A stretch of DNA of 64,000 bases, taken from NCBI GenBank assembly GCA_016185345.1, contig JACPNS010000008.1, forward strand, positions 1-64,000. Reading direction: 5' to 3'. This stretch comes from Solirubrobacterales bacterium (lineage in GTDB: Bacteria; Actinomycetota; Thermoleophilia; Solirubrobacterales; JACPNS01). Made by a program: the position numbers and the translations under genes. Every line of letters starts with the position of its first letter. Position 1 is the first letter of the stretch. This document shows positions 1,665 through 34,470 of the stretch, one piece after another. The notes under the pieces are model-generated. The model searched no databases, was not told the DNA's origin, and was given only the letters and a program-made list of their open reading frames with translations.

Positions 1665-3116
1665 ATGAGGATCAAGTTGAGTAGCACCGACATCACCAAG
1701 TCTGAATTGCAGCACGAACCTTCGCCGACCGAAGGCGTCCCGCTGGTGGACCTTGGGTCGCTGATGCTTTACGCAACGCGGAACACGACCGTGCTTCCGA
1801 ACGTCGCGACCATCCGACTCTTCAAGGGCCACCTCACCGCCGACGAACTCCAGCGCGAGGCGCTGCGCATCTCATCCAACCCGTTCGGGCTGGGGCGCAA
1901 GCTCGAGATGCCGCGCGTTCCAGGCGCCCGCCCACTCTGGCGCGCGAACCCGATCCCGCCTGAGGTCCCGATCAATCCGGCGCTGCACACTCCAGAAGAA
2001 GTCGCCGCTTACTTCGAGGACGAGATGAGCGTCCGCCTCGACCCGCTCGAGGGCCGCGGTTGGCGCCTGGCCGCGGCGCCCTACGGCGAGGACACGCTCG
2101 TCACTCTTGGGATCAACCACCTTTACGGCAGCGGCCGCGACATCGTCATGTCGGTCTGGGGCGACGAGTCCTTCGTGCTCGACGAAGAGGGCCGCACTCA
2201 GTACCACGGCCAGATGGCCAACGGCAACTTCAGGCACAGCATTCGCGGCGAGGCCAAGGATCTTGCTTCGCGCATCCGTACCGGCGTGACCGGAATCGCC
2301 CGCCTCGGCAGCCAGGCCTTCACCAGCCCCGGCGAGCGCGAGCCGAACGGCGACGCGGCTACTGCGCGCCGCCCGCTCGACGCGCTGCTCGACAAGGACA
2401 AGAGCCGCGGCAAGCCGTCGCGCCAGCGCGTGCTTGCGCTTGCACGCGTAAACCTGAACGACTTTCGCGATGTCGCCAAAGAGCGTTCGGGCAGCGTGCT
2501 GGCTCTGCAGATCGCTGTCACGGCGAACCTCTTGCGCGAGGCGCGCAGGGCTCGTGGTGGACCGACGCACCGCCCTCTGCGCATCCTGATTCCGGTTGAT
2601 CTTTCTGACCACGCGGACTCGCACGACCCGGCTGCAGGCCTTGGGCCAGTTGAACTGACCTCGGCCGGCGTCACGCTGCCCGGAGGCGGATCGACCCACG
2701 AGAACCTCTCGTTGGTTCGCGAGACCTGCGACCATGCCGTCGCCGAGGCTCGCGCCGAAGTTGCAGCGACTGGCCGCGTGCCGGTCGCCCCGGGGATGGT
2801 TGACGCGATGCGTCTGCTGCCCGACGCCTTGACCACTCGCGCAGTAGTGCACGTGCACTCGCGCTTTGACGGTGCCGCCTCAAACCTCGGCATCCAACAC
2901 CCGAACGCAGCCGTGATTGGATCCCACACAGCGTTCGAGAGCTACATGGTCGCCTTCCCGCTCGGCAGCGACCTCGTGCTCACCATGACCAGCGTCGGCG
3001 ACGAATTGGCAATCGGGGTCGTCGCAGACCCGAGCCGACTCGGTGCCGGTGCCCCGCTGCGCGAGCGTCTCGCAGAGGAACTCGCGGCCTGGGGCCTGGA
3101 GGCAAAGGTCCGGTGA
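1665..3116 (+). CDS. WS/DGAT-like acyltransferase homologue 1
   Basis: 483-residue protein from the ATG at 1665; a GTG at 1632 is in frame but would extend past the paralogue N-termini. Overall length, the N-terminal strand pattern and the C-terminal FDGAASNLG segment match the wax ester synthase/diacylglycerol acyltransferase fold (condensation-like, CoA-dependent acyl transfer). The catalytic HHxxxDG motif is replaced by NHLYGSGR (residues 151-158): the second His is kept, the first His is Asn and the Asp is Ser. First of three tandem paralogues; its stop overlaps the next start by 4 bp. It may transfer acyl groups to an unusual acceptor or be non-catalytic. Confidence 0.75.
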   Translation: MRIKLSSTDITKSELQHEPSPTEGVPLVDLGSLMLYATRNTTVLPNVATIRLFKGHLTADELQREALRISSNPFGLGRKLEMPRVPGARPLWRANPIPPEVPINPALHTPEEVAAYFEDEMSVRLDPLEGRGWRLAAAPYGEDTLVTLGINHLYGSGRDIVMSVWGDESFVLDEEGRTQYHGQMANGNFRHSIRGEAKDLASRIRTGVTGIARLGSQAFTSPGEREPNGDAATARRPLDALLDKDKSRGKPSRQRVLALARVNLNDFRDVAKERSGSVLALQIAVTANLLREARRARGGPTHRPLRILIPVDLSDHADSHDPAAGLGPVELTSAGVTLPGGGSTHENLSLVRETCDHAVAEARAEVAATGRVPVAPGMVDAMRLLPDALTTRAVVHVHSRFDGAASNLGIQHPNAAVIGSHTAFESYMVAFPLGSDLVLTMTSVGDELAIGVVADPSRLGAGAPLRERLAEELAAWGLEAKVR

Positions 3117-4537
3117 CTCCGCCGATCACGACAGACGCGGGGCTCCGCACCGCATCGTCGCCGCCGGTCATTCCGGGGGTCGAGCTGCCGCTGATCGAGT
3201 GGGGCAACCTGGCGCTGCGCGCAGGCCGGGTCGGCACCAACTATCCGCACATGGCCTGGCTGCAGCGCTTCGAGGGCAGCATTTCGATCGACGACCTGCA
3301 GGCCGAGGCCCGCCGCATCGGAACGAACCCGTATGCCTTCGGCCGCAGGCTGAAGAAGTCGCGCTACCCGGGCGGTCGCATGCGCTGGACCCAGTGCGAG
3401 AACGTCCCGCCCGTCGAGTTCAGCTCCGAGCCCATTGACGATTGGCGCGCCTGGGTTGACAGCGTGCTCGGCCGCCGCCTCGATCCCGAACGCGAGTACG
3501 GCTGGACGATGCTCGCCTGCGAGACCACTGACGGCGACACGATCGTGCTCGTGCTGATGCACCATCTCTTCGGCACTGCCCGCGGGATCATGGACGCCTG
3601 CTTCAACCCCGAGGTCCACGACCCATTGATGGGCTCGACGGGCTACACCTTCACCAAGGAGTACGACTACTCCCCGCGCGCAGAGCTACGTGGGATCCTC
3701 GATCGCATTCGGCTCGGGTTCGTCGGGCTCGGGATGGCATTGCGCGCGATCCCGCTCGCGATCAAGAAGGCGCGCACGGCGCCCAAGGCCGCAGCGCCCG
3801 GACTACCGACGCCACTTCGCGCAGCCCGCGGCGCCGATCCGACGCGGAAGGACCTCTCCCCCGATCGCGTTTACGCGTATTACCGCGCGCCCGCGGAACA
3901 GCTTGAAGCGGTCGCGGCCGAGTTCGGCGGGAGCTCCAACTCGCTGCTCACCGCGATCACGGCGAACATGATCCGTCGCGCGCGCATCGCGCGTGGTGGG
4001 CAGACCGACCGCAACATCCAGCTGGTGATCCCGATGGACATCCCGGACGAGCAGAAGCGCGAGAAGCTCGCAAACGTCGGGAAAGACCCCGGCGCCGAGG
4101 ATCTGCTGATCACTGCGGCACTGGTGCTGCCCGGAGGCACGCCGGCGCACACCGAGCTCGGCCAGACCAAGGCACGCACCAAAGAGGCCTTCATCGCCGA
4201 CTCGCAGACGCCGACCGCGATGCGCGGAGCGGCCGATGTCGCCCGTTTCTTTCCCGAGCGGCTCACTTACTTCTTCGCCGCGAAGGCGGCTACGGCGTTT
4301 GATGGTTGCGCCTCAAACGTCGGCGAGCTCCCGGAGAACTTTCGTTTTCTCGGCGAGCACGAGGCAGTCGAAACACAAATGATCGGGTTCCCGATCGGCA
4401 ATGAGCTGATGAGTGCGCTGACGCGCAGTGGAGGCGACATTGCCATGACGTTCATGACCGATCCGGCCCGGATGGGCGAAAACAAGGACCTGCGCCAGTG
4501 GCTTGCTGAAGAGCTCGCCGCGTGGGGCATCAGCTAA
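3113..4537 (+). CDS. WS/DGAT-like acyltransferase homologue 2
   Basis: 474 residues from a GTG that overlaps the preceding stop (GTGA), implying coupled translation. Aligns along its length with its neighbours: N-terminal LIEWGNLALRAG strand region, central motif HHLFGTAR at 150-157, and C-terminal FDGCASNVGEL. Of the three paralogues it alone keeps both histidines of HHxxxDG, but the D-G pair is T-A. The SNVGEL segment replaces the SNVPGP-type motif of canonical wax ester synthases. Predicted cytosolic or peripheral. Activity on acyl-CoA is inferred only from fold. Confidence 0.75.
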   Translation: MTPPITTDAGLRTASSPPVIPGVELPLIEWGNLALRAGRVGTNYPHMAWLQRFEGSISIDDLQAEARRIGTNPYAFGRRLKKSRYPGGRMRWTQCENVPPVEFSSEPIDDWRAWVDSVLGRRLDPEREYGWTMLACETTDGDTIVLVLMHHLFGTARGIMDACFNPEVHDPLMGSTGYTFTKEYDYSPRAELRGILDRIRLGFVGLGMALRAIPLAIKKARTAPKAAAPGLPTPLRAARGADPTRKDLSPDRVYAYYRAPAEQLEAVAAEFGGSSNSLLTAITANMIRRARIARGGQTDRNIQLVIPMDIPDEQKREKLANVGKDPGAEDLLITAALVLPGGTPAHTELGQTKARTKEAFIADSQTPTAMRGAADVARFFPERLTYFFAAKAATAFDGCASNVGELPENFRFLGEHEAVETQMIGFPIGNELMSALTRSGGDIAMTFMTDPARMGENKDLRQWLAEELAAWGIS

Positions 4538-4555
4538 GCCGGGGGGCAAAGCAAA

Positions 4556-5971
4556 ATGAGCAAGAACACACTGGTCAAGCCGCTTGACGATCACTCGGAG
4601 ATGTACGTGAGGGTCAGCCGTTCGAAGATCCACCCGCCTTGTTACGGCCTGGTGCGTTTCTTCGACGAGGAGATCACCGCGGACGAATTCGCCGAGCACA
4701 CGCTCGCCCTTGCCCACAACCCGCACGGTCTCGGCCGCCGCGTCGAGAAGCCGCGCATCCCCGGCGCCCGCGCCCGTTGGGTGCCCTCCACAATCCCGCC
4801 ATCGATCCGCATGGAGACCGAGCCGCACAGCCCGGAGCAGCTCTCAAGGCTGATCGACGCCGTCGCAAGCCAGCGCCCGGACCCGGCGCGCGACAGCGGA
4901 TGGCGTCACGTCGCAGCCAGGACAGAAGACGGCGGAACGATGGTCATCACGTGGATGAACCACGCGTTCGGCGACGCCCGCAGCCTCTTCGAGACGATCC
5001 TCGGCGACCACACAGACGTGCGTGGCATGAACGATCTGATCGAGCAGATGGGCGCGCCGTCTGAGCAGGTGTCCAGGCCGCTCCTGTCTTCAACTCGTGA
5101 TGAGCTTGGCGACGTCGCCAGCCGCGTCCGTCGCGGCATCAGCGGCAGCGCCCGGCTCAGCCGCGACGCGATGCTCTCGCCGCTCGGCGCCGGCCGTCGC
5201 GAAGAGCTAGCGCTGCTCGGCCCGGCAGTCGCCGCCATGCGCCGCCGCCCACGCACGGTCGGCACCCTGACCAGCCGCCGCACGGCCGCGATGGCGCGTA
5301 TCGACCACGACCTCTGGCGCCGCACCTCGCGCGCGCACGGCGGATCGAGCAACACGCTGTTCATCGCGATCCTCGCGAACCTGATGCGCCAGGCGCGCCG
5401 CGCGCGTGGAGAGGCCCCGCTTGACCGCTTGCGCATCCTCATGCCGGTGGACATCGGGATGGCGCTCGACGCCATGAACGTGCCGATCGAGGAGCGCCCT
5501 ACCGCGACAGTGATCGCTTCGCTGATCGATCTGCCGGGAGACCTCTACTACGGCGACCTCGGTGTTGTCAAAGACGCGATCAAGCAGGCGATTGACACCG
5601 CGCTTGCAGATGCGAACACAACCGGCGGATCAACGCGCCCAGCTGGCATCGTCGATGCGATGAGCCTGATGCCCAACGCAATCACCCACCGCATCGCCGC
5701 GCGCGTGCAGACTGGTTTCGACGGTGTTGCTTCGAATGTTGGCGAGATGCACATTCAGCAGAAGGCCGGCATCGCCGAGCACACCCCGACCGAGATGTAC
5801 ATGCTCGCCGCACCGATGCGCACGGACATTTCCGGAGTGTTCGCCTTCTACGACGGCACCTTGACGCTGTCGTTCATGGCCGACCCTTCAAAGCTTGGAC
5901 CGGGCGGCGCCTTCGCCGACCGTGTGGCAACTGAACTCGAGAGATGGGACGTGACCGGCGATGTCTGGTGA
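4556..5971 (+). CDS. WS/DGAT-like acyltransferase homologue 3
   Basis: 471 residues; a GGGGGG-rich ribosome site sits 8-10 bp before the ATG. Same architecture as the two preceding genes with the motif NHAFGDAR at 135-142: second His and Asp kept, first His is Asn, Gly is Ala. C-terminal FDGVASNVGEM matches paralogue 2. Its last 11 bp overlap the start of the ABC ATPase gene, tying the acyltransferase-like set physically to a transporter. The N-terminus is about 15 residues shorter than in the paralogues. Confidence 0.75.
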   Translation: MSKNTLVKPLDDHSEMYVRVSRSKIHPPCYGLVRFFDEEITADEFAEHTLALAHNPHGLGRRVEKPRIPGARARWVPSTIPPSIRMETEPHSPEQLSRLIDAVASQRPDPARDSGWRHVAARTEDGGTMVITWMNHAFGDARSLFETILGDHTDVRGMNDLIEQMGAPSEQVSRPLLSSTRDELGDVASRVRRGISGSARLSRDAMLSPLGAGRREELALLGPAVAAMRRRPRTVGTLTSRRTAAMARIDHDLWRRTSRAHGGSSNTLFIAILANLMRQARRARGEAPLDRLRILMPVDIGMALDAMNVPIEERPTATVIASLIDLPGDLYYGDLGVVKDAIKQAIDTALADANTTGGSTRPAGIVDAMSLMPNAITHRIAARVQTGFDGVASNVGEMHIQQKAGIAEHTPTEMYMLAAPMRTDISGVFAFYDGTLTLSFMADPSKLGPGGAFADRVATELERWDVTGDVW

Positions 5972-7061
5972 TCACCTGACCAACGCCTACGACCCCGCGC
6001 CCCCGCGCGGCGTCACCAAGGCGGACATAACGTTCGACACGCTCGACTGCACCGAGCAGATGACCGACCAGCTGCTCGGCGCGATGCACCGTGTGCTCGC
6101 GGCGCAGCGCCGTGTCACCTTCACGATCAAGACCGATGGCGCAGAGCTCGAAGGCGACGCCGAGTCGATCTTCACGCTCGCGACGCACCTGCACGCGCTG
6201 CCCGCCGACATCGGCATGCCGCGCGTGACGATGCAGCTGAAGATGCGCGACGAGGACCAGATTGGCCAGGTCCTGCCCGGCCCCGCTTCTTGGATCCCGC
6301 ATCAGCCAAAGGCAAATGCGCCGCTCGCAGTTGAAGTCCGCGGCCTCACAAAGGTCTACGACAACGGCGAAGTCAAGGTTCGCGCTCTGCAGTGGATCGA
6401 CCTCGAGATCCAGAAAGGCGAGTTCGTTGCCGTGATGGGGCCGTCGGGCTCGGGCAAGAGCACGCTGATGCACATTCTCGGCGCGCTCGAGACCCCGTCC
6501 TCGGGAGTGCTGCGCATTGGCAACACCGACTACGACTCACTTACAGACGCCGAGCAGACGCGCTTCCGCCGCGACCACATCGGCTTCGTCTTCCAGTTCT
6601 TCAACCTCTTCGGCACGCTGACCGCCGAAGAGAACGTGATGCTGCCCTCGCTGATCGCCGGCGAGAATGCAGATTCGCTGCGCGGCCGCGCACGCGAGCT
6701 TCTCTCGATGGTCAACCTCGACGAGCGCGCAGACCACCTGCCGTCGCAGCTTTCCGGCGGCGAGCAGCAGCGCGTTTCGGTCGCGCGTTCGTTGATGCGC
6801 GAACCCGAGCTGATCCTTGCCGACGAGCCGACCGGAAACCTCGACTCCAAGAACAGCGCCGCAGTGCTTGATCTTCTGACCCAACTGCAGCGCGAACAGG
6901 ACCGCACGATCTTGATGGTCACTCACGATCCGGTCGCGGCCAGCCGCGCCTCGCGCGTCGTTTTCCTGCGCGACGGTAAGTTCGACGAGCAGGTCACCGG
7001 CGGCGACCCGAACCTGATCCTCGAGTACTTCGCCAAGCTCGGCACCAACCCGGACGAGTAG
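5961..7061 (+). CDS. MacB/LolD-type ABC ATPase with extra N-terminal domain
   Basis: 366 residues. The ABC domain starts near residue 122: Walker A GPSGSGKST (160-168), Q-loop in FVFQFFNLF, signature LSGGEQQR (264-271), Walker B LILADEP (284-290) and switch His in MVTHD. This pattern is the MacB/LolD/FtsE class that works with FtsX-like permeases, and such a permease follows 9 bp downstream. Usual ATPases of the class are 220-250 residues; here about 120 residues precede the domain, with alternating charged strands (TFDTLDC..., VTFTIKTDG, PRVTMQLKMR) that I do not recognise. The start overlaps the third acyltransferase-like gene by 11 bp. Confidence 0.9.
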   Translation: MSGDHLTNAYDPAPPRGVTKADITFDTLDCTEQMTDQLLGAMHRVLAAQRRVTFTIKTDGAELEGDAESIFTLATHLHALPADIGMPRVTMQLKMRDEDQIGQVLPGPASWIPHQPKANAPLAVEVRGLTKVYDNGEVKVRALQWIDLEIQKGEFVAVMGPSGSGKSTLMHILGALETPSSGVLRIGNTDYDSLTDAEQTRFRRDHIGFVFQFFNLFGTLTAEENVMLPSLIAGENADSLRGRARELLSMVNLDERADHLPSQLSGGEQQRVSVARSLMREPELILADEPTGNLDSKNSAAVLDLLTQLQREQDRTILMVTHDPVAASRASRVVFLRDGKFDEQVTGGDPNLILEYFAKLGTNPDE

Positions 7062-7070
7062 ATCAGCCCG

Positions 7071-9623
7071 ATGATCCTCGCCATGTCATGGCGGAGCGTG
7101 AAGGCCCACAAGCTCCGCAGTCTGCTCAACGCGCTCGGCATCGTGCTCGGCGTGGGGTTGATTTTCGCGGTCATCTCGCTTTCGACGACTTTGGTGAACA
7201 CATTCGACAGCCTTTATTCATCGGTCTATGGCGAGACCGACTTGCTGGTCACGCCGCCGACGCTCGATGGCACGATCAAGCGCGACAAGCTCGCGGTCGT
7301 GCTGAAGGAACCGGCCGTGAAAGAGGCGAGCGCGAGCGTCGTGAGCGTTCTTTCCGTCATGCGCGACGGCAAGGCAGGCGTAAAGCAGACCGACCAGATC
7401 AACACTTCTGGCGTCGATCCGACCGCGCCCGACCTGACAGGCGCGAAGATCATCGAGGGCCGCAACATCCGCGCCGGCAACGACCTCACGATCGACAGCG
7501 AGTTCGCGCGGCGCAAGAAACTTGAGCCCGGTGACACGCTCCGGCTCGCAACCCCGGACGGCAAGAAGAAGTTCCGCGTCGTCGGGGTTCTCGAGTTCGG
7601 CAGCGGCGTGCAGTTCGGCGGCCAAGGCTTCGCGAACATCCCGATCAAGCGCGCCCGCAGCGTCTTTGACATCGACTCCGGATACAGCCAGATCGCCGTG
7701 AAGCTCGACCGCGACGCGAACGCAGCCGCGGTGCAGAAGCGGCTCGATCGCAGGCTCGGCAACAAGGTTGACGTGAAGACGCCGTCCGAGAAAGGCGACG
7801 AGGCCGCCTCGCAGATGCGCGCCTTCAACGTGATCCTCTACTTCTTCGCCGCGATGAGCCTGTTTGTCGGCGGCTATCTGATCCTCAACTCATTCAACAT
7901 GACTGTCGCTCAGCGCATGCGCGAGATCGGCATGCTGCGCACGATCGGCGCTTCGCAGAGACAGATCGTTTCGATGATCCTCTTCGAGGCCGTACTGCTT
8001 GGACTGATCGGCTGCGCAGTGGGTCTGTTTGCGGGCATCGGCCTGACCAAGTTGATGACCGAGCTCGTCCAGGCCGTGAACGTGCCGATCGGTGACGTCA
8101 CCTACCCGCCGCTCGCCTTCTTCCTTGCGCCGCTGATCGGCATGATCGCGACTGTGGTTGGCGCGCTGCGTCCGGCGATCAAGGCTGGCCGCGTTCCGGC
8201 AATTCGCGCGGTGGTTTCTGATCACCGAGCAGACAAGATCGAAAAACTCCCGCGCGTCGGCCTCGCCGCGATTGCCATCCCGATCGGACTGTGGGGCGTT
8301 TTCAAGCTGGCCTCCGCGAGCACGATTCCGGCGAGTACCGCCGCGATCGGAATCATCGGCATCATGCTGCTGCTCGCCGGCGTGATCGCGCTCGCGCCCG
8401 TGGTCATCCCACTCATCGTCAATGCTCTTTCTTCTGCGATCAAACTGGTCACGCCGATCGAGGGGCGCCTCGCTGCCGACCAGTCGCGCGCAAACCCCAC
8501 GCGTTCTGCCGCAACTGCGTCGGGCCTGATGATCGGCGTCGCACTCGTCGCCGCGATCGGTAGCCTTGGCGCGAGTCTGATCGGCAGCATCTCCGACCAG
8601 CTCGACAAGCGCCTGCTCAACGACTTCACCGTTCAGCCCAACGACTTCCGTCAGGGCGGGATCGGCACGCGCACATCTATCTCGTCGAAGGCCCTCGATC
8701 GCATCGGCCAGATCGACGGCGTGAAGACCGCGACCGGCGTGCGCCTGCTGTACGTGCCGGGCGGGTTCAAGGGAAGCGACTTCCAGGCCTTCGGCTACGA
8801 CCCCGACAAGCGCCGCCAGATCGTGCGCCAGGAATACAACGGCGTCTCAGCGGCAACGGTCATGCGCCGCCTCGATCGCGGGCAGGTCACCGTCGGCGGT
8901 CAGCTCAAGCGCGGGCGCAACCTCGAGGCCGGCGACAAGATCACTTTGACCGGTCAGGACGGCGATCAGAAGTACAAGGTCGCCGCAACCCTTGCGACGG
9001 CGTCCTTCGAAGACCAGGCGATCAGCATGTCCAACAAGACCTTCCGGGATCTCTACGGAATCAAGGGCTATTCGCAGGTGAACATCGTGGCCGAGGGCAA
9101 CACGCCGGCGGCTCGCGCGTTGGTCGGCAAGCGCATCCGAAGTCTCTTGAAGGACGACTACCCCAACCTCGACTCGCTCTCGAATGCCGCGGTCAAGGAC
9201 CAGGTCAAGGCCCAGACCAATCAAATCTTCTCGATCTTCTACGTGATCATGATGGTCGCGATTGCGGTGAGCCTGCTCGGCGTGGTGAACACGTTGTTGA
9301 TCAGCGTGATCGAGCGAACACGCGAAACCGGTGTGCTCCGCGCGATCGGATCGGGCCAGTGGCAGGTTCGGCGAATTATCGGCGACGAGAGTGTGCTGCT
9401 CACGGTCGCCGGCGCGGTGCTCGGGCTGACGGTCGGGATGGCGATCGGTTGGGCATTCGTGCAGGGCGTGAGCCAAGGTCTTGACGGCGTGGTCTTCACG
9501 CCTCCGACTGGCGTGATCATCGCCGTCGCGCTCTCGAGCGTCATCCTTGGGCTGATCGCGGCGATTCTTCCTGCGCTGAAGGCCACGCGCATGAACATCA
9601 TCGACGCGATCGGCTACGAGTAG
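7071..9623 (+). CDS. FtsX/MacB-like ABC permease, two FtsX domains
   Basis: 850-residue membrane protein with two FtsX-type units. Unit one has an N-terminal helix (about 13-35), an extracytoplasmic MacB-like region and three helices ending near 385 (includes REIGMLRTIGAS). A hydrophobic linker around 395-460 leads to unit two, with another periplasmic-like region and three C-terminal helices (includes RETGVLRAIGSG). This matches permeases that use mechanotransmission to extract or export lipids, lipoproteins or small molecules. Encoded directly after its ATPase. A role in moving an acylated product of the three upstream proteins is inferred from position. Confidence 0.88.
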   Translation: MILAMSWRSVKAHKLRSLLNALGIVLGVGLIFAVISLSTTLVNTFDSLYSSVYGETDLLVTPPTLDGTIKRDKLAVVLKEPAVKEASASVVSVLSVMRDGKAGVKQTDQINTSGVDPTAPDLTGAKIIEGRNIRAGNDLTIDSEFARRKKLEPGDTLRLATPDGKKKFRVVGVLEFGSGVQFGGQGFANIPIKRARSVFDIDSGYSQIAVKLDRDANAAAVQKRLDRRLGNKVDVKTPSEKGDEAASQMRAFNVILYFFAAMSLFVGGYLILNSFNMTVAQRMREIGMLRTIGASQRQIVSMILFEAVLLGLIGCAVGLFAGIGLTKLMTELVQAVNVPIGDVTYPPLAFFLAPLIGMIATVVGALRPAIKAGRVPAIRAVVSDHRADKIEKLPRVGLAAIAIPIGLWGVFKLASASTIPASTAAIGIIGIMLLLAGVIALAPVVIPLIVNALSSAIKLVTPIEGRLAADQSRANPTRSAATASGLMIGVALVAAIGSLGASLIGSISDQLDKRLLNDFTVQPNDFRQGGIGTRTSISSKALDRIGQIDGVKTATGVRLLYVPGGFKGSDFQAFGYDPDKRRQIVRQEYNGVSAATVMRRLDRGQVTVGGQLKRGRNLEAGDKITLTGQDGDQKYKVAATLATASFEDQAISMSNKTFRDLYGIKGYSQVNIVAEGNTPAARALVGKRIRSLLKDDYPNLDSLSNAAVKDQVKAQTNQIFSIFYVIMMVAIAVSLLGVVNTLLISVIERTRETGVLRAIGSGQWQVRRIIGDESVLLTVAGAVLGLTVGMAIGWAFVQGVSQGLDGVVFTPPTGVIIAVALSSVILGLIAAILPALKATRMNIIDAIGYE

Positions 9624-9628
9624 AGCTG

Positions 9629-10327
9629 ATGTCCGCGCTGCATGCGCAGGGCCTGACGCGGCGCTTCGGCGAGCGGACGGCCGTCGATGGCGTGAGCTTC
9701 TCGGTCGAGGCCGGAGAGTCTGTGGCGATCGTCGGTCCGAATGGCGCCGGCAAGACGACGCTGCTCTCGATGATCGCCGGGGTCCAGGATCCCGATGACG
9801 GTTCGCTCGAGACTCCGCCCGGTGGCGTCGGTTGGGTTCCCCAGCGCGCGGCCGTCTACGGAAAGCTGAGCGTGCGCGAAAACCTGGAGTTGTTTGCGAC
9901 GTTCGAAGAAGTGCCCGATCGGGCCGCCGCCGTGGATCGCACGTTGGAGCGGATCGGCCTGACCGAACGCGCCGACGATCGAACCGAGGGCCTCTCGGGC
10001 GGCATGCGCCAGCGCGTGAGCATCGGGATAGGATTGATCGCCGATCCTCCAGTTCTGCTGCTGGACGAGCCGACCGCCGCGCTCGACCCGCTCCAGCGTG
10101 ATCGACTCTGGAGATTGCTGAACGGGCTCGCCGCTGACGGGATTGCGGTCGTCTACTCCAGTCACTCGGCGAGCGAAGTGCAGAACCACGCCGACCGTGT
10201 GCTCGTGATGGACGGCGGCGAACTCGTCTACGACGGCCTCCCGTCTGAGATCGGCGAGGCCGCAGACTTCGAAGAGGCGTTTGTTGACTTCCTACGCGCG
10301 AGCCGAGCAGCCGGAGGCATCGAATGA
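9629..10327 (+). CDS. ABC exporter ATPase (CcmA/NatA type)
   Basis: 232 residues with Walker A GPNGAGKTT near residue 36, signature LSGGMRQR near 128, Walker B LLLDEPTAALDP and switch region SSHSASE. Belongs to the ATPases that pair with ABC-2 permeases for export. Begins 5 bp after the FtsX permease stop and overlaps the next gene by 4 bp (ATGA), so all seven genes from 1665 are likely co-transcribed. The substrate cannot be told from sequence. Confidence 0.9.
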   Translation: MSALHAQGLTRRFGERTAVDGVSFSVEAGESVAIVGPNGAGKTTLLSMIAGVQDPDDGSLETPPGGVGWVPQRAAVYGKLSVRENLELFATFEEVPDRAAAVDRTLERIGLTERADDRTEGLSGGMRQRVSIGIGLIADPPVLLLDEPTAALDPLQRDRLWRLLNGLAADGIAVVYSSHSASEVQNHADRVLVMDGGELVYDGLPSEIGEAADFEEAFVDFLRASRAAGGIE

Positions 10328-11664
10328 AGTTTCGCGCGCTGCTTCGAAAAGACTTTCGCATGCTGCAGCGCTCGCCGTCGCTGACGATTCTGTTGGTGCT
10401 CTATCCCATCGTCGTGGCCGTCCTGATGGGCCTTGCGATCGGGCGTCCGCAGACCAAACCGACGATCGTCATTTCAAACCAGGTGCCCAAGGAAGAGCGC
10501 GTGGTCAAGCTCGGTGGATCGACCTTCAACCTCGACGAGCTGACCGGCGCGCTGTACGAGAATGTCGACGCGAAGACCGTTGACACCACGAACGAGGCAA
10601 TCTCGGCGGTGAGGCGCGGTGACGCCGTGGCCGCGATCGTGATCCCGACGGACATCGTCGATCAGCTCACCTCTGGCACGAGTCAGGGCGAGATCAAGGT
10701 TATTTACGACTCGTCCAACGCGGTGCGCAAGTCCGCAGTTGAAACCACGATCAACGGCGTGCTCGCGGGAATCAACCGCGAGCTGACCAGCACGTTCCGA
10801 GATCAGACCTTGGAGATTCTCAACGCGCTCGTGAAGGGCGGCAAGTTCGATGGCCTGGGGCAGGGCGGATCGATTCTTGGCTTCGCGGACGGTAAGACTC
10901 TGCTTGACCGGATCGTCTCCTCGGCCCCGCCCAGGGATCGCGCTGACGTGCGCAGGCTTGCAACGACGATGGAGCTGTCCCAAGTCGGGATTGGCTTTGC
11001 CGACACGCTGCTCAAACGTATTGGCGAACCGATCAAGCTCGATCGCGAACCGATCGGGACGGTCTCTTCGATTCCCGCTCTCGCCGTGGCGGTGGCGGCA
11101 TGCGTGTCGATGATGTTCGTCGCATTGCTGCTCGGGGCCGGCACGCTTGCGCTTGAGCAGGAGGACCGGATGCTCTCGCGGCTGCTGCGCGGATTGCTCT
11201 CGCGCACGACGGTTGTCGTCGAGAAGGTGACGCTCTCCGCAATCTGCGCGTCGCTGGTTGGATTGTTGATGCTTGCGGGATTCTCGATCTTCCTGAACAT
11301 CCAATGGGACAGGTCCTTCATCTGGATCCCGGCGGTCGTGGCTGGCGCGGTTGGATTGTCGGCGGCCGGCGTCGCGATCGGTGCGCTGATGCGTGACGTG
11401 CGGGCTGCGTCGCTCGTCGCCTTCATGGTCGGGCTGCCGCTCGCCGCGGCCGCGCTCGTACCCAGCGATTCGGTGGGTACTGTGCTTGGCGCTGCGATCG
11501 CCGGCGTGTCTGCGCTCTTCCCATTCAAGCCTGCGTTCGACCTGCTGAGCGCGGGGCTGACGCCTGACGGCGAGCCGTTGCTACCGCTTCTGCACCTCGC
11601 CGTGCTCAGCGTCGTGTACGGCGCGATCGCCGTTGCAGCAGTGCGGCGCTACCAGTACGCGTAG
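10324..11664 (+). CDS. ABC-2 type permease with large extracytoplasmic region
   Basis: 446 residues: one N-terminal helix (about 17-40), a soluble region of roughly 200 residues predicted outside the membrane (about 45-250), then five to six helices to the C-terminus. This layout is the ABC2_membrane_3/YhgE-like class of exporters. The NQVPKEE... start of the loop and the DVVDQLTSG-like AIVIPTDIVDQL stretch are typical. Last gene of the block; after its stop comes the upstream region of the sulfate operon. Confidence 0.85.
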   Translation: MKFRALLRKDFRMLQRSPSLTILLVLYPIVVAVLMGLAIGRPQTKPTIVISNQVPKEERVVKLGGSTFNLDELTGALYENVDAKTVDTTNEAISAVRRGDAVAAIVIPTDIVDQLTSGTSQGEIKVIYDSSNAVRKSAVETTINGVLAGINRELTSTFRDQTLEILNALVKGGKFDGLGQGGSILGFADGKTLLDRIVSSAPPRDRADVRRLATTMELSQVGIGFADTLLKRIGEPIKLDREPIGTVSSIPALAVAVAACVSMMFVALLLGAGTLALEQEDRMLSRLLRGLLSRTTVVVEKVTLSAICASLVGLLMLAGFSIFLNIQWDRSFIWIPAVVAGAVGLSAAGVAIGALMRDVRAASLVAFMVGLPLAAAALVPSDSVGTVLGAAIAGVSALFPFKPAFDLLSAGLTPDGEPLLPLLHLAVLSVVYGAIAVAAVRRYQYA

Positions 11665-11813: not shown

Positions 11814-12809
11814 ATGTCGAGAACGCTCAAAATCATCATCAGTTCCATCGTCGCGTTTGTTGCAGCCGTCTCGGTCGCCGGTTGCGGTGGCGGAAGCGAC
11901 GCTGGAACCAAGCTCGCGCTCGTCGCCTACTCAACCCCGCAAGAGGCCTACAAGAAACTCATCCCCGCCTTCCAAGCAACTACCGCGGGAACCGACGTTG
12001 ATTTCAGCGAGTCGTACGGCGCGAGCGGCGAACAGTCGCGAGCGGTCGCCAACGGCCTGCCCGCTGACGTCGTCGAATTCAGCCACGTCGGCGACATGGA
12101 GCGTCTTGTAGAGAAGGGCACCGTCGCCAAGGACTGGGACACGGGCGAGTACAGGGGCATCGTCTCAGACAGTGTTGTGGTCTTCGCCGTCCGCAAGGGC
12201 AACCCGAAGAAGATCAAGAATTGGTCTGACCTGACCAGGCCCGGAGTCGAAGTGATCACCGCCAACGCAGTGGTCAGCGGCGGCGCGCGCTGGAACCTCA
12301 TCGCAGCCTACGGCCAGGCAATCAAGTCCGGTGCCAGCCAGCGAGATGCACTCGGCTACGTCTCTGATCTGCTGAAGAATGTCCCGGTTCAGGACAAGTC
12401 AGCGCGTGAGGCGTTGCAGACCTTCTCAGGCGGCAAAGGCGACGTTCTGCTCACGTACGAGAACGAGGCGATCACAGCGAAGAACGCTGGACAGGATGTC
12501 GACTACGTGATCCCGCCCACGACAATCCTGATCGAGAACCCCGTCGCGGCAACCGCCAAGGCACCGAAACAGGCGCAGGCATTCGTGGATTATCTCTTCA
12601 CCGATGAGGCGCAGAAGATCTTCGCCGAGGCCGGCTATCGCCCGGTCAACCAAGCGTTGCTCGACGAGACGAAGTTCCCGCAGCCCGACACTCTCCTGAA
12701 CGTCGATGAGTTCGGCGGCTGGAGTCAGATCTCCGACTTCCTGTTCGATGAGAAGACCGGAAAAGTCACCGAGATAAACGAGAGTCTGGGCGTTGAGAAC
12801 TCCGACTGA
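11814..12809 (+). CDS. sbp: Sulfate-binding lipoprotein of ABC importer
   Basis: 331 residues. Signal peptide ends in the lipobox VAGC (Cys24), so the protein is lipid-anchored outside the membrane. The mature part has sulfate/thiosulfate-binding-protein landmarks: SYGASGEQSRAVANGLPADVV, the VVSGGARWN segment, and DVLLTYENEA. It captures sulfate and delivers it to CysT/CysW. The ATG is preceded by a strong CAGGAGG site. The gene overlaps cysT by 17 bp. Operon order sbp-cysT-cysW-cysA is standard for assimilatory sulfate uptake. Confidence 0.93.
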   Translation: MSRTLKIIISSIVAFVAAVSVAGCGGGSDAGTKLALVAYSTPQEAYKKLIPAFQATTAGTDVDFSESYGASGEQSRAVANGLPADVVEFSHVGDMERLVEKGTVAKDWDTGEYRGIVSDSVVVFAVRKGNPKKIKNWSDLTRPGVEVITANAVVSGGARWNLIAAYGQAIKSGASQRDALGYVSDLLKNVPVQDKSAREALQTFSGGKGDVLLTYENEAITAKNAGQDVDYVIPPTTILIENPVAATAKAPKQAQAFVDYLFTDEAQKIFAEAGYRPVNQALLDETKFPQPDTLLNVDEFGGWSQISDFLFDEKTGKVTEINESLGVENSD

Positions 12810-13656
12810 TCAGTCGATCGTTTCGACGCAGGACCCGGCGGCGGGTAGCCTCGAGCGCGCCCGGCGTCGGCCGCTGCCTTCACCAGGAGCACTCGCCGGA
12901 TTGGCGTTCGGCGGCGTGTTCCTGGCGGCAGTCATATTGCTGCCGCTGGCCGCGGTGGCGGCCGCTGCGTTTGAAGATGGCTTCGCGGAGTTCTTCCGGG
13001 CGATCACCAAGCCGCAATCGTGGGCGGCGCTTCGATTCACCTTGATTGCGTCTGCGGCGGTGACCCTGATCAATGCCGTGACCGGCACGCTGATGGCCTG
13101 GGTGCTCGTTCGCGACGATTTCCGCGGGAAGCGCCTTGTTAATGCCGCGATCGACCTTCCGTTTGCGCTGCCGACGATCGTTGCCGGCTTGACTCTGCTG
13201 GCGCTTTATGGCCCCAACGGGCCAACCCCGATCAACGTCGGCTTCACCCAGGCCGGCGTGGTGCTCGCGCTGCTCTTCGTGACGATGCCGTTCGTGGTGC
13301 GGTCAGTACAGCCTGTGCTGCTCGCTTTCGACCGGGAGATGGAGGACGCAGCCGCATCGCTCGGAGCCGGTGGCTGGATGACCTTCCGCCGAGTGATCTT
13401 CCCCAACCTGCGTGGCGCGATGTTCGCCGGCTGTGCGCTCAGCTTTGGCCGTGCGCTCGGCGAGTTCGGCAGCATCGTCCTGATCTCCGGCAACCTGCCG
13501 TTCAAGACCGAAGTCTCGAGCGTTTACATCTTCGGCCAGATCGAGAACGACAACCTTCAGGGGGCCGCAGCGGTTTCCGTCTTGCTGCTGCTCGCCGCCC
13601 TTCTCGTGATCGCGTCGATCGGGTTCATCTCGCGGATCGGAGATCACCGTGCCTGA
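12793..13656 (+). CDS. cysT: Sulfate ABC transporter permease CysT
   Basis: 287 residues from a TTG inside the end of sbp; six membrane helices after a polar, 30-residue N-terminal tail. The EAA-like loop is visible as MEDAAASLGAGGWMTFRRV, which contacts the ATPase, and the GRALGEFGSIVLISGN segment is the CysT/CysW signature. Forms the heterodimeric pore with CysW. The stop overlaps the cysW start by 8 bp. The first start is uncertain because no clear ribosome site is seen; coupling to sbp translation is likely. Confidence 0.92.
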   Translation: MRTPTDQSIVSTQDPAAGSLERARRRPLPSPGALAGLAFGGVFLAAVILLPLAAVAAAAFEDGFAEFFRAITKPQSWAALRFTLIASAAVTLINAVTGTLMAWVLVRDDFRGKRLVNAAIDLPFALPTIVAGLTLLALYGPNGPTPINVGFTQAGVVLALLFVTMPFVVRSVQPVLLAFDREMEDAAASLGAGGWMTFRRVIFPNLRGAMFAGCALSFGRALGEFGSIVLISGNLPFKTEVSSVYIFGQIENDNLQGAAAVSVLLLLAALLVIASIGFISRIGDHRA

Positions 13657-14539
13657 TCCGATCGAGTTCGAGCCACATGTCGACCTGCCATTCCGGGCAG
13701 CGCATCGCGGCGCCGTCGGAACTGGGCGCTCGGGCTTCGCGCTTCGCGCACTCGCGCTGCTCTACATCGCGCTGCTTCTAGGCGCACCAGTGGCCATGGT
13801 TTTCTACCGCGCGTTCGAGCCGGGCCTCGCCGCAATGTGGGAGAGCATCACCGAGCCGAACGCCCTGCGCGCCTTTTGGCTGACGATCATCTGCGTTGGC
13901 GTGGCGGTCCCCCTGAACACGATATTCGGCGTCACCACAGCGCTCTACATCGTGCGCGGTCGTGGTCGCCTGCGCCGCGTGCTTGACTCGATCATCGACC
14001 TACCGTTCGCGATCTCGCCGGTCGTCGTCGGTTTGGCGCTGATCCTCGTCTATGGCCAGAACGGCTGGTTCGGTGAGCAGCTCACGAGCGTCGGCCTCCA
14101 GGTGATCTTTTCGTTGCCAGGGATGATTCTCGCGACCACTTTCGTCAGCCTGCCGTTCGTCGCGCGTGAGGTCATTCCCGTTCTGCGCGAGATCGGCGAC
14201 GAGCAGGAACAGGCCGCGCGCGTGCTCGGCGCGGGCGACTGGCAGACCTTCTGGCGCGTGACCCTGCCATCAATCCGATGGGGTGTCGGCTACGGAATCG
14301 TCCTCACCACCGCACGCGCACTCGGTGAGTTTGGCGCAGTTGCAGTGGTCAGCGGAAAGATCATCGGCGAGACCGAGACGGCGACACTGCTCGTTGAGAA
14401 TCGATTCACCCAGTTCGACGTTGCTGGCGCTTATGCCGCATCCGTGGTGCTGGCAGTCGCCGCACTGATCGTGATTCTGTCGATGACGCTGCTGCAGCGT
14501 CGCACCAACACCGAAGAGCAGCTCGAACATGGCGATTGA
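13649..14539 (+). CDS. cysW: Sulfate ABC transporter permease CysW
   Basis: 296 residues from a GTG overlapping cysT. Six predicted helices, the EAA loop [17 protein letters not shown], and the family segment [17 protein letters not shown] followed by [14 protein letters not shown], which is characteristic of CysW. A polar N-terminus of about 35 residues precedes the first helix. Overlaps cysA by 11 bp. Works with CysT in the membrane to pass sulfate inward. Confidence 0.93.
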
Positions 14540-15491
14540 AGTCAACCACGTGACCAAGCGATTCGGCGATTTCCACGCGCTGGATGACGTCAGCGTCTCT
14601 GTGCCCGACGGCTCTCTGACCGCGCTGCTCGGACCCAGCGGCGGCGGAAAGAGCACGCTTCTCCGCGTAATCGCCGGCCTGGAGATTCCCGATTCAGGGA
14701 TCGTGCGGATCGCCGACGACGACGTCACGAACGTGGTGCCGCAGGATCGCGATGTCGGGTTCGTTTTCCAGCACTACGCGGCCTTCAAGCACTTGACAGT
14801 GCGCGACAACGTCGGCTTCGGGCTCACCATTCGCAAGCGCCCCAAGAAGCAGATCAGCGAGACCGTCGATGAGCTTCTGGACCTGGTGCAGCTCGATGGA
14901 TTCGCCGGTCGCTACCCAGACCAGCTCTCGGGCGGACAGCGCCAGCGCATGGCATTGGCTCGTGCCCTCGCGGTGGAACCGCGGGTGCTCCTGCTCGACG
15001 AACCGTTCGGCGCTCTGGACGTGAAGGTGCGTCAGGACCTTCGTGACTGGTTGTTGCGCCTTCACGATGAGCGCCCGGTCACGACGATCATCGTCACGCA
15101 CGATCGCGAAGAGGCGATGGAACTGGCGTCCCAGATCGTCGTCATCAACGGCGGCAGGGTCGAACAGACCGGATCGCCGGATGAGCTGTATGACGCCCCT
15201 GCGACTGAGTTTGTTGCTGGCTTCGTCGGTCCAGTCGTGGAGCTCAACGGCAATCTTGTCAGGCCACACGACATCGTCGTCAGCCACGACGCTGAACCTG
15301 GTTCGTCAGAGGCGCTGGTCGAACGCGTCGCGCGAGTTGGGTTTGAGGTACGCGTCAGTCTGGTACTCGATCACGTTGGTCCGCTGAGCGTTCTGCTCAC
15401 TCGGCGCGAAGCCGACCATCTCGAATTGTCCGACGGCCAGATCGTCCACGTTCGCGCTGATCGCGACGAGTCACTCGTCAAGGCCCGGTGA
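14529..15491 (+). CDS. cysA: Sulfate/thiosulfate ABC importer ATPase CysA
   Basis: 320 residues. ABC domain at about 1-235: Walker [10 protein letters not shown] (residues 37-45), Q-loop FVFQHYAAF, signature LSGGQRQR, Walker [13 protein letters not shown], switch [13 protein letters not shown]-like region follows (about 240-310, [16 protein letters not shown]...), as in CysA. The [16 protein letters not shown] segment is typical of the sulfate subfamily. It energises the CysTW permease. Closes the transporter operon; the Rrf2 gene starts 75 bp downstream. Confidence 0.94.
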
Positions 15492-15566: not shown

Positions 15567-16028
15567 GTGAGGGTTTCGGCAAAGGTTGACTACGCGCTAC
15601 GCGCATCCGTAGAGCTGGCCGCGCACGAGGGCGACGAGAGGCTCGTCACCTCTGAAGAGATCGCTGAGCGCCAAGGCATCCCGCACGCTTTTCTGACCAA
15701 CATCCTTCAGTCGCTACGTCAGGCAGGGCTTGTGACGAGCAAACGCGGTCCGGTGGGCGGACACAAGCTCGCCAAGCCTGCAAGTGCGATCGTCGTGGCC
15801 GACGTGATCCGCGCGATCGACGGACCACTGGCAGGCGTTCAGGGCCAGCACCCTGAGGAGCTCGACTTCATCGGCTCAGCAAAGCCACTCCAGTCGGTCT
15901 GGATTGCCGTGCGCGCCAACCTTCGCGAGATCCTTGAGCACGTCACGCTGGAGGACGTTGCAAGCGACGACCTCCCGAAGATCGTCGACAAGCGTGCCGC
16001 GAACGAAGACGCCTGGGTCAGTCGCTGA
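15567..16028 (+). CDS. Rrf2-family transcriptional regulator without Fe-S cysteines (CymR-like)
   Basis: 153 residues from a GTG with AAAGGG upstream. The winged helix matches Rrf2 proteins: start VSAKVDYALRA, recognition segment IPHAFLTNILQSLRQAGLVTSKRGPVGG, then a dimer helix. Iron-sulfur Rrf2 members (IscR, NsrR) carry three cysteines near residues 90-110; this protein has no cysteine at all. That fits the CymR branch, which controls sulfate and cysteine genes through O-acetylserine or protein partners rather than a cluster. Position after cysA supports local control of sulfate uptake. Confidence 0.85.
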   Translation: MRVSAKVDYALRASVELAAHEGDERLVTSEEIAERQGIPHAFLTNILQSLRQAGLVTSKRGPVGGHKLAKPASAIVVADVIRAIDGPLAGVQGQHPEELDFIGSAKPLQSVWIAVRANLREILEHVTLEDVASDDLPKIVDKRAANEDAWVSR

Positions 16029-22114: not shown

Positions 22115-24559
22115 ATGCCCGCGACCAACAAGGCCACACATTCCGAGCCCGAGCTGACACCCAAGCCGCTCGATCCCGAGTCCCTGAGGCTTTTGGACGC
22201 CTACTGGCGCGCGGCGAATTACCTCTCGGTCGGGCAGATATATCTGCTCGACAATCCGCTGCTTCGTGAGCCGCTGCGCATCGAGCACGTCAAGCCGCGC
22301 CTGCTCGGTCACTGGGGCACGACCCCGGGACTGAACTTCATCTACGCCCACATGAATCGGGTGATCCGCGCCGGTGACTTGAACGCCATGTACGTCACCG
22401 GGCCGGGCCACGGCGGGCCGGGCCTGGTGGCCAACACCTACCTCGAGGGCACGTACTCGGAGGTCTACCCGGGCATAGGGCAGGATGAAGAGGGGCTGCG
22501 CCGACTGTTCAGGCAGTTCTCCTTCCCCGGCGGAATCCCCAGTCACGTCGCACCCGAGACGCCGGGCTCTATTCACGAGGGCGGCGAGTTGGGCTACGCA
22601 CTCGCGCACGCCTATGGGGCCGCGTTTGACAACCCCGACCTCCTGGTGTGCTGCGTCATCGGTGATGGCGAGGCCGAGACGGGGCCACTCGCCGCGAGCT
22701 GGCACTCAAACAAGTTCCTCGATCCAGCGCGCGACGGCGCGGTGCTTCCAGTGCTGCATCTCAACGGCTACAAGATCGCCAGCCCGACCGTGCTCGCCCG
22801 GATCCCGCAGGAAGAGCTGCAATCTTTGCTCGAGGGCTACGGGCACAGGCCGTATTTTGTCGAGGGCGAGAACCCCGAAGAGGTGCATCAGCGTATGGCA
22901 TCCGTAATGGACGCAGTCATCGAGGAGATCTCTGAGATCCAACGCGGCGCCCGCAACGGCGTTGCAGACCGACCGCGCTGGCCGATGATCGTGCTGCGGA
23001 CACCCAAGGGCTGGACAGGCCCCAAGGAGGTCGACGGTAAGCCGGCGGAGGGCTCTTTCCGCTCTCACCAGGTGCCGCTGACCGACCTGGCGAACAACCC
23101 GGAGCACCTCGCTCAGCTGGAAGCGTGGTTGCGCTCATACGCACCCGACGAGCTCTTCGATGAGGCGGGCACGCTGCGCCCGGAAATCGCGGCGATCGCT
23201 CCTCGCGGAAATGCGCGGATGGGCGCCAATCCCCACGCCAACGGGGGCACCCTGTTGCGCGATCTGGAACTGCCCGACTACCGCGACAACGCGGTCGACG
23301 TGCCGTCGCCGGCGACCTCGAGCAGCGAGGCAACGCGAGTGTTGGGCACATGGCTGCGCGACATCATCAAGGCCAACCCCGACAGCTTTCGGCTCGTCGG
23401 GCCCGACGAGACGGCATCCAACCGTCTGGGGTCGGTCTTCGAGGTCACGAATCGTGCCTGGAACGCGGAGACCCGCGACGATGACGACCACCTCGCGCCA
23501 GATGGACGGGTGATGGAGGTCTTGAGCGAGCACATGTGCCAGGGGTGGCTGGAGGGGTATCTGCTCACGGGCCGCCACGGGCTCTTCAGTTGCTACGAGG
23601 CCTTCATTCACATCATCGATTCGATGTTCAATCAACACGCCAAGTGGCTGAAGGTCACCCGCGAGATCCCGTGGCGGCAGCCGGTCGCGTCACTGAATTA
23701 TCTGTTGACCTCGCACGTGTGGCGACAGGATCACAACGGCTTCTCCCACCAGGATCCGGGCTTCATCGACCATGTGGTCAACAAGAAGGCCGAGGTGATC
23801 CGCATATACCTGCCGCCGGACGCGAACTGCCTGTTGTCGGTGGCCGACCATTGCCTGCGCAGCCGCCACTACGTCAACGTGATCGTGGCCGGCAAACAGC
23901 CGGCGCTTGACTACCTCACAATCGAGGAGGCGGCCGCGCACTGCGCCCGTGGCCTGGGGATCTGGGAGTGGGCCAGCAACGATGACGGCGGCGAGCCGGA
24001 CATCGTGATGGCTTGCGCCGGAGATATCCCCACGCTCGAAACGGTCGCCGCCACCGCACTGCTGCGCCAGCACCTGCCGAAGCTGCGAATCAGGGTTGTC
24101 AACGTCGTGGACCTGATGCGCCTACAGCCCGAAAGCCAACATCCGCATGGCCTTTCAGACCGCGATTTCGACGCGCTGTTCACCGCGAGCAGTCCGGTGA
24201 TCTTCGCCTACCACGGCTACGCCTCCCTGATCCATCGCCTCACGTACCAGCGAACCAACCATCACAACATACACGTGCGCGGCTACAAGGAGGAGGGGAC
24301 AACCACCACGCCGTTCGACATCCTGATGCTGAACGACGTGGACCGCTTTCGTCTCGTGATCGACGTGATCGACCGGGTGCCCGGACTTGGCGAGCAAGCG
24401 GCCGGGTTGCGGCAGGCAATGGTCGACGAGCGACTGCGCCACCGCGCGTACACACGCGAGGTCGGCGACGACATGCCCGACGTACGCGACTGGACGTGGC
24501 CCACCGACGACAAGCACCCGGCGCACGACGCAGGCCACGGACACGGCAGCGCTGTCTGA
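22115..24559 (+). CDS. xfp: Phosphoketolase (xylulose-5-P/fructose-6-P)
   Basis: 814 residues, normal length. Recognisable features are [18 protein letters not shown] near residue 64, GPGHGGPG (TPP/phosphate contacts), the TPP-binding [19 protein letters not shown], and PxxGYxxHG-type C-terminal segment [13 protein letters not shown]. The enzyme splits xylulose-5-P or fructose-6-P with phosphate to acetyl-phosphate plus a sugar phosphate, using TPP and Mg. An AAGGAGCCACCAAGG site precedes the ATG. Acetate kinase follows after 3 bp, so acetyl-phosphate is turned into ATP and acetate. Confidence 0.96.
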
Positions 24560-24562
24560 CCG

Positions 24563-25675: not shown

Positions 25676-25751
25676 CCCGCCGGTTGCGACTCCCCAGCGC
25701 GACCCTCGACAGGGACGAGCATGCATCAGGACTCATAAGGAAGCTTGAGCC

Positions 25752-34407: not shown

Positions 34408-34410
34408 AAA

Positions 34411-34429
34411 CATGATCATATCGCAATAT
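34411..34429. promoter_or_regulatory. AT-rich imperfect dyad between arsR and ABC exporter
   Basis: CATGATCATATCGCAATATCACG contains TGAT.ATAT and ATAT(C)A halves in inverted order around CGC with one unpaired base. It lies between two divergent starts, where an ArsR dimer would bind. Weak evidence. Confidence 0.3.
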
Positions 34430-34470
34430 CACGTTGTTATCTACATAAGCGACGCTACGGTGACCACGCG

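What the first reader, a model, noticed from the sequence alone, without database searches (positions are those of the whole stretch)
1665..11664. Tandem WS/DGAT-like trio wired to two ABC exporters
Three paralogues with altered motifs (NHLYGSGR, HHLFGTAR, NHAFGDAR) share the pattern [NH]H[LA][FY]G[STD][GA]R instead of HHxxxDG. They overlap each other and an ABC ATPase, followed by an FtsX permease and a second ABC pair, all in one direction. Invariant second His, Gly and Arg suggest a distinct subfamily. A system that makes and exports an acylated surface lipid is a reasonable guess, but no substrate is known.
Basis: partly seen in the sequence, partly recalled or inferred. Interest (0 to 1): 0.7.

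Follow-up and report, generated by a model that had tools for sequence, protein, structure and literature searches.

The report
Three-enzyme lipid acylation unit with exporters
Three ancient sister enzymes of the wax-synthase fold, inherited together with one sugar-adding enzyme and, in this genus, with two duplicated export pumps, probably attach fatty chains to a sugar lipid that is sent to the cell surface of some soil and groundwater bacteria; the product is unknown.

Summary
In detail: three tandem paralogues (1665-5971) followed by two ABC exporter pairs (5961-11664), one strand. They are a distinct subfamily, not ordinary WS/DGAT. They miss the curated cut-offs (33-38 bits against 310 for TIGR02946), and the tree puts A1, A2 and A3 in three clades (each 100% bootstrap) inside one trio clade, apart from ordinary WS/DGAT. 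The models have the WS/DGAT/PapA5 fold. The order A1-A2-A3 is kept in seven genomes (five of 151 Solirubrobacterales genomes searched, plus Solirubrobacter and Goekera). The second His is invariant; the Arg is not. The Asp of HxxxD is kept only in A3. The ABC genes adjoin the trio only in this genus, as extra copies of widespread modules; two trio-less congeners lack them. Distant mycobacterial-type relatives sit beside the same kind of GT, PapA, Pks and MmpL. Best reading: the GT makes a glycoside, A1-A3 esterify it, the ABC pairs export it. Chemistry is inferred; no product is known.

The parts
1665..3116 (+). A1: WS/DGAT-fold acyltransferase-like protein, motif NHLYGSGRD (catalytic His kept, Asp of HxxxD replaced by Ser)
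   Evidence: TIGR02946 E 2e-8, 33.6 bits, cut-off 310; A1 clade 100/95; model pLDDT 80.7; best PDB match WS/DGAT 6chj E 5.9e-20
3113..4537 (+). A2: paralogue, motif HHLFGTARG (Asp replaced by Thr; Ile in some orthologues; Arg not conserved)
   Evidence: 38.1 bits; A2 clade 100/100
4556..5971 (+). A3: paralogue, motif NHAFGDAR; the only one with the HxxxD core intact in all orthologues
   Evidence: 33.3 bits; A3 clade 100/98; model; best matches 8s6l E 6.3e-19, WS/DGAT 6chj, MEL acyltransferase 8jos E 2.4e-15
5961..7061 (+). MacB/LolD-type ABC ATPase with a PF01910 (MTH1187/YkoF-like) domain fused at its N terminus (about residues 1-118)
   Evidence: in the second, genus-wide module the PF01910 protein is a separate ORF in three of four loci read
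7071..9623 (+). FtsX/MacB-type permease (850 aa), trio-linked duplicate of a genus-wide permease
   Evidence: trio-linked copies 100/100
9629..10327 (+). ABC ATPase of an ABC-2 exporter
   Evidence: 65% identity in G003
10324..11664 (+). ABC-2 permease, trio-linked duplicate of an order-wide permease

Best explanation
The trio is a three-step acyltransferase unit for a polyacylated glycolipid. A cytosolic GT-B glycosyltransferase (encoded elsewhere in this genome, G000 contig C21:252366-253619) glycosylates an acceptor. A1, A2 and A3, each specialised for one position or one acyl chain, then move acyl groups from acyl-CoA to hydroxyls with the conserved second His as base. The Asp of HxxxD, thought to be structural in related enzymes, is kept in A3 and dispensed with in A1 and A2. 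In this genus the product is exported by two ABC systems recruited by duplication: an FtsX/MacB-type pair and an ABC-2 pair, perhaps also by the MFS protein beside the GT. Shown: the genes, their subfamily, their co-inheritance, the fold (by model), the invariant His. Inferred: acyl transfer, the glycolipid product, the direction of transport.
For: Subfamily and unit: A1, A2 and A3 each monophyletic, trio clade 100/99, subtrees congruent; mean orthologue identity 52%, within-genome paralogue identity 38%. Glycosyltransferase: at E<=1e-40 in 6 of 151 order genomes, including all 5 that carry the trio (hypergeometric 1e-8, phylogeny ignored); adjacent to the trio in G003, Patulibacter americanus, G077 and Solirubrobacter in three arrangements; no close copy in congeners G002 and G004, which also lack the trio. 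Exporters: trio-bearing genus members carry an extra FtsX and an extra ABC-2 permease, trio-linked; G002 and G004 have only the other copy. Distant relatives: in 7 of 9 loci read they lie near PapA-like condensation proteins, in 4 near the same GT family, in others near MmpL and a Pks; a Tsukamurella locus has WSD-like + GT + condensation protein, and L079 has WSD-like + GT + PapA-like + ABC-2 pair. Fold: WS/DGAT, PapA5, and the mannosylerythritol-lipid acyltransferase PtMAC2p. PtMAC2p works with D replaced by G in HxxxD while its His is essential (PMC10619693); WS/DGATs with the first His replaced are active (PMC5513132).
Against: No enzyme here or close by has a tested activity. In the window's own genome the GT is unlinked, and Goekera has the trio but no close GT. 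The ABC link rests on one genus (three species). D-to-A changes in ordinary BAHD enzymes nearly abolish activity (quoted in PMC10619693), so A1 and A2 could be inactive. The ABC families also include lipoprotein, peptide and drug exporters. The mycobacterial-type relatives are distant (E about 1e-14 to 1e-36).
Confidence: 0.55

Rival explanations
1. The trio acylates a glycosylated secondary metabolite (an exported small molecule such as a polyacylated glycoside or polyketide) rather than a structural surface lipid.
For: The GT belongs to the EryCIII/GT28 group, which includes enzymes of antibiotic biosynthesis; patchy distribution, 5 of 151 genomes, and a likely transfer to Goekera; a related gene in a Streptomyces plasmid lies near a cyclase, a P450 and an ABC pair.
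Against: No core scaffold gene (PKS, NRPS, terpene cyclase) was recognised near the trio in the loci read; the closer relatives sit in PapA/MmpL lipid clusters.
Confidence: 0.2
2. Only A3 (HxxxD intact) is catalytic; A1 and A2 are non-catalytic partners that shape or hold the acceptor.
For: Asp is kept in all A3 orthologues and lost in all A1 and A2 orthologues; fixed gene order.
Against: The second His is invariant in A1 and A2 as well, across the aligned orthologues, which a pseudoenzyme would not need; PtMAC2p is active without the Asp.
Confidence: 0.15
3. The trio makes ordinary neutral storage lipid (wax ester or triacylglycerol), and the ABC genes are chance neighbours.
For: Same fold and distant WS/DGAT homology.
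Against: The genome has a separate ordinary WS/DGAT with HHAVIDG; the trio is outside the sampled WS/DGAT clades; GT and duplicated exporters co-occur with it.
Confidence: 0.05
4. The ABC genes are an unrelated resistance or lipoprotein-handling operon that merely follows the trio in one genus; the trio and GT are the only real system.
For: No ABC genes beside the trio outside the genus; both ABC families are widespread in the order.
Against: Trio-linked copies form their own clades (FtsX 100/100, ABC-2 93/95), the first ATPase overlaps the A3 reading frame, and the copies are missing from the trio-less congeners.
Confidence: 0.25

Closest known systems
WS/DGAT family (TIGR02946, PF03007/PF06974), e.g. 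Marinobacter 6chj and Acinetobacter 7nxg
   Same: Fold (Foldseek E 5.9e-20 and 1e-16 for A1), length, position of the catalytic second His, C-terminal SNV region
   Different: Far below the curated cut-offs; HHxxxDG broken; separate clade; tandem triplet with GT and exporters
PapA5 (phthiocerol/phthiodiolone dimycocerosyl transferase, sequence of 8s6l_A)
   Same: Best PDB sequence match to the trio profile (E 5e-4); PapA enzymes put acyl chains on exported lipids (general knowledge)
   Different: No PF00668 condensation match in the trio; PapA-like proteins occur as separate genes next to the mycobacterial-type relatives
Mannosylerythritol lipid pathway of smut fungi (EMT1, MAC1, MAC2, MAT1, exporter Mmf1)
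   Same: One GT plus several acyltransferases plus an exporter; one acyltransferase keeps HxxxD and another lacks the Asp yet is active (PMC10619693); fold match to PtMAC2p (8jos)
   Different: Fungal, not the same genes by descent; two acyltransferases and an acetyltransferase, MFS exporter (PMC9600162); product known
Mycobacterial acyltrehalose and lipooligosaccharide clusters (PapA, Pks, GT, MmpL)
   Same: The sister clade of the trio lies in clusters of this make-up
   Different: No MmpL or Pks recognised beside the trio; ABC exporters instead; three fixed paralogues
MacB/LolCDE-type and DrrAB-type ABC exporters
   Same: Domain make-up (PF00005 + FtsX + MacB_PCD; PF00005 + ABC2_membrane)
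   Different: Below the LolD and MacB equivalog cut-offs; ATPase fused to a PF01910 domain

Membership tests
WS/DGAT (TIGR02946) | Score above curated cut-off of 309.95 bits | tested here: not met
   33.6, 38.1 and 33.3 bits
WS/DGAT (PF03007 / PF06974) | Pfam gathering score | tested here: not met
   A2 13.3 bits against 23.6 for PF03007, A1 14.7 against 20.7 for PF06974, A3 none
WS/DGAT | HHxxxDG active-site motif | tested here: not met
   second His kept in all; DG altered: SG/TG/HG in A1, TA/IA/TV/TG in A2, DA/DG in A3
WS/DGAT | Falls inside the clade of ordinary WS/DGAT proteins | tested here: not met
   separated at 100/99 from 22 ordinary proteins taken from five genomes
HxxxD / CoA-dependent acyltransferase superfamily (WS/DGAT, PapA, BAHD, condensation) | Two-lobed fold with the catalytic His after a central strand | tested here: met
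   by predicted models only: pLDDT 80.7 and 80.9, Foldseek E down to 5.9e-20; strand 143-151 followed by His152 in A1
HxxxD / CoA-dependent acyltransferase superfamily | Acyl transfer activity | not testable with these tools
   needs purified protein
PapA / condensation (PF00668) | PF00668 match | tested here: not met
   no PF00668 match in A1-A3 up to E 1, while the PapA-like neighbours of relatives match it
MacB/LolCDE-type ABC exporter | PF00005 ATPase with FtsX and MacB_PCD permease | tested here: met
LolD or MacB equivalog | NCBIfam equivalog cut-off | tested here: not met
   ATPase 236.6 against 307.75 (LolD) and 229.4 against 966 (MacB)

The most novel reading that the evidence does not exclude
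A previously undescribed class of multiply acylated glycolipid, built by a three-paralogue acyltransferase unit and one GT, coats the surface of some Thermoleophilia, a deep actinobacterial lineage; in one genus its exporters were recruited by parallel duplication of two widespread ABC modules.
Probability: 0.35. Interest if true: 0.65.

Novelty: new variant of a known kind. Interest (0 to 1): 0.5.

Why it matters
The envelope lipids of Solirubrobacterales are little known; a paper search on Solirubrobacter, Patulibacter and glycolipids gave no report of such a system. A rare unit with a clear genetic signature in named strains (Patulibacter americanus, Solirubrobacter) makes a lipid hunt by knock-out or heterologous expression feasible. 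The family also gives a natural series on one question of enzyme mechanism: how acyltransferases of the HxxxD fold work, or are repurposed, after losing the Asp.

Tried and rejected
Degenerate-pattern search with all 14 proteins at once failed; the A1 group alone worked. No relative in viral contigs. Plasmid search with A1 gave only one distant Streptomyces hit. Considered and rejected: ordinary storage-lipid synthesis; the Arg as a defining residue. The MFS transporter beside the GT was tested as a further member and left as weak: related MFS proteins also occur in trio-less genomes of the Patulibacter group. Promoter and terminator scans gave nothing above chance. Some scripts failed and were redone: the first alignments because the HMMER table was cut off (redone); (GT start not found, replaced); the first set of ordinary WS/DGATs held reversed loci (corrected). 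Paper searches found no description of such a trio in the open-access library.

Full report
What is there. The window (contig C8 of a 2.43-Mb genome of 22 contigs, G000; its order holds Patulibacter americanus, hence Solirubrobacterales or kin) carries seven consecutive + strand genes, 1665-11664, with overlaps or gaps of 4 to 18 bp. The first three are paralogues of 483, 474 and 471 aa, 32-34% identical to the first over full length. They resemble the WS/DGAT family only weakly: TIGR02946 at E 2e-8, 8.5e-10 and 2.4e-8 with 33-38 bits where the curated cut-off is 310, and no Pfam model above its cut-off. The next four are an ATPase and FtsX/MacB-type permease, and an ATPase and ABC-2 permease. 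The genome has one ordinary WS/DGAT elsewhere, with HHAVIDG, so the trio does not stand in for it.

The motif. HHxxxDG is broken in a way that is specific to each gene and conserved among orthologues. A1 reads xHL[YF]G[STH]GRD, A2 reads HHL[YF]G[TI]xxG, A3 reads xHA[FY]GD[AG]R. The second His and the following Gly are invariant in the proteins aligned. The Asp survives only in A3. Two papers bear on activity: PtMAC2p, which acylates mannosylerythritol lipid, works with Gly in place of the Asp and loses more than 1000-fold activity when its His is changed (PMC10619693); and two Thraustochytrium WS/DGATs with the first His replaced are active (PMC5513132). The altered motifs therefore do not by themselves argue for dead enzymes. 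The first paper also quotes strong losses on Asp-to-Ala in ordinary BAHD enzymes, so A1 and A2 need testing.

Subfamily. A tree of 59 proteins places A1, A2 and A3 each in its own clade (100/95, 100/100, 100/98), all three in one clade (100/99), next to a group of mycobacterial-type proteins with a single His (HxxxDG), and both apart from ordinary WS/DGATs (100/99). The within-clade order of genomes is nearly the same in A1, A2 and A3, and Goekera (another actinobacterial class) falls inside the Patulibacter branch in all three, which suggests transfer of the whole trio. Orthologues average 52% identity, paralogues within a genome 38%. The sample of ordinary proteins comes from five genomes and the relatives were chosen with the trio profile, so the tree shows separation, not the full history. 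Models of A1 and A3 (pLDDT 80.7 and 80.9) match WS/DGAT 6chj, the chain 8s6l (the sequence library names it PapA5; the fold library labels the entry otherwise), condensation domains and PtMAC2p.

Distribution and neighbours. Of 151 genomes of the order, five carry the trio: the window's genome, two of four congeners, and two of genus g22. In G001 the A1 gene is cut by the contig end. Named genomes with it are Patulibacter americanus (its contig has the same length as that of G071), Candidatus Solirubrobacter pratensis and Goekera deserti. The ABC genes follow the trio only in the window's genus (in G001 part of the set lies on a second contig). Outside it they are not there.

The glycosyltransferase. 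A GT-B protein (EryCIII-like C-terminal and GT28 N-terminal domains) lies next to the trio in Patulibacter americanus, in G077 (where a stretch of about 15 kb now splits the gene), in Solirubrobacter upstream on the other strand, and in G003 just after the ABC genes. At E<=1e-40 it is found in 6 of 151 genomes, and those include all five with the trio. Taken at face value the chance of that is 1e-8; shared ancestry makes the true figure larger, but the two trio-less congeners lack a close copy too. In the window's own genome it is on another contig (C21:252366-253619), beside a divergent MFS gene; the same GT-MFS pair is in G001 and G003. Goekera lacks a close GT.

The exporters as duplicates. 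All five genus members have one FtsX-type permease and one ABC-2 permease at about 49-53% identity to the window's; the three with the trio have a second, trio-linked copy of each. The trio-linked FtsX copies form a clade (100/100) beside the other copies (99/98), so one duplication in or before the genus ancestor fits, followed by loss (or by spread of the block as a unit) to give the present pattern; for the ABC-2 permease support is lower (93/95) and fewer rows were used. G002 is 86% and G004 93% complete, so a single absence could be a gap, but the absence of trio, both extra ABC copies and GT together in both is unlikely to be one. In three of the four second-module loci read in the genus (own genome, G002, G004) a separate 101-104-aa PF01910-like protein lies near the ATPase; in the trio-linked ATPases this domain is the N terminus. 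Its role is unknown.

Distant relatives. In the nine loci read, seven have PapA-like condensation proteins nearby and four the same GT family; MmpL proteins and a Pks of 2095 aa are in some. A named Tsukamurella record shows a WSD-like protein with a GT and a condensation protein, and L079 has an ABC-2 pair.

How it probably works. GT first, then three acylations by A1-A3 with acyl-CoA, then export. What is shown is co-inheritance, predicted fold and an intact catalytic His. What is inferred is the reaction, the sugar, the acceptor and the cargo of the exporters. The closest working parallel is the mannosylerythritol lipid pathway: one GT, two acyltransferases of which one lacks the Asp, an acetyltransferase (PMC10619693), and an MFS exporter (PMC9600162, abstract). 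This is likeness of function, not membership.

Verdict. It is a new subfamily and a new arrangement of known kinds of parts, of moderate interest, with a product that could be sought in named strains.

Noticed in passing
window 5961-6314 (N-terminal ~118 codons of the ATPase); L151:9885-10190, L152:5468-5773, L155:603-917: A PF01910 (MTH1187/YkoF-like, 'thiamine-binding') protein is a separate ORF near the widespread ATPase-FtsX module of the genus and is fused to the ATPase in the trio-linked copy. A ligand-sensing role is a guess.
   Followed up: partly
L021:8815-9300 and G077:C2:540837-541730: In G077 the trio-adjacent GT gene is split: its N-terminal 150 codons and the remainder lie about 15 kb apart, with an inserted stretch between. 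The insert was not identified.
   Followed up: partly
L053-L055 (tree): The trio of Goekera deserti falls inside the Patulibacter branch in all three gene clades, which suggests horizontal transfer of the whole trio between actinobacterial classes.
   Followed up: partly
window 11814-15491 and 15567-16028: Directly downstream on the same strand lies a set that looks like a sulfate-type ABC importer (binding protein, two permeases, ATPase; by eye) followed by an Rrf2 regulator; it does not follow the ABC genes in G003.
   Followed up: no
window 22115-28115: Phosphoketolase (XFP), acetate kinase and a GH65 enzyme in a row on one strand: possibly a sugar phosphorylase feeding a phosphoketolase-acetate route.
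   Followed up: no
window 34387-36008, 49097-50802, 60685-62351: Three more ATPase plus ABC-2-type permease pairs besides the one at 9629-11664, four in 64 kb.
   Followed up: no
L150:7983-9191 (Streptomyces camelliae plasmid): A distant relative of the trio, annotated as hypothetical, lies between an F420-dependent oxidoreductase and an FAD oxidoreductase, with a polyketide cyclase, P450 and ABC pair nearby; the family may also serve in polyketide pathways.
   Followed up: no
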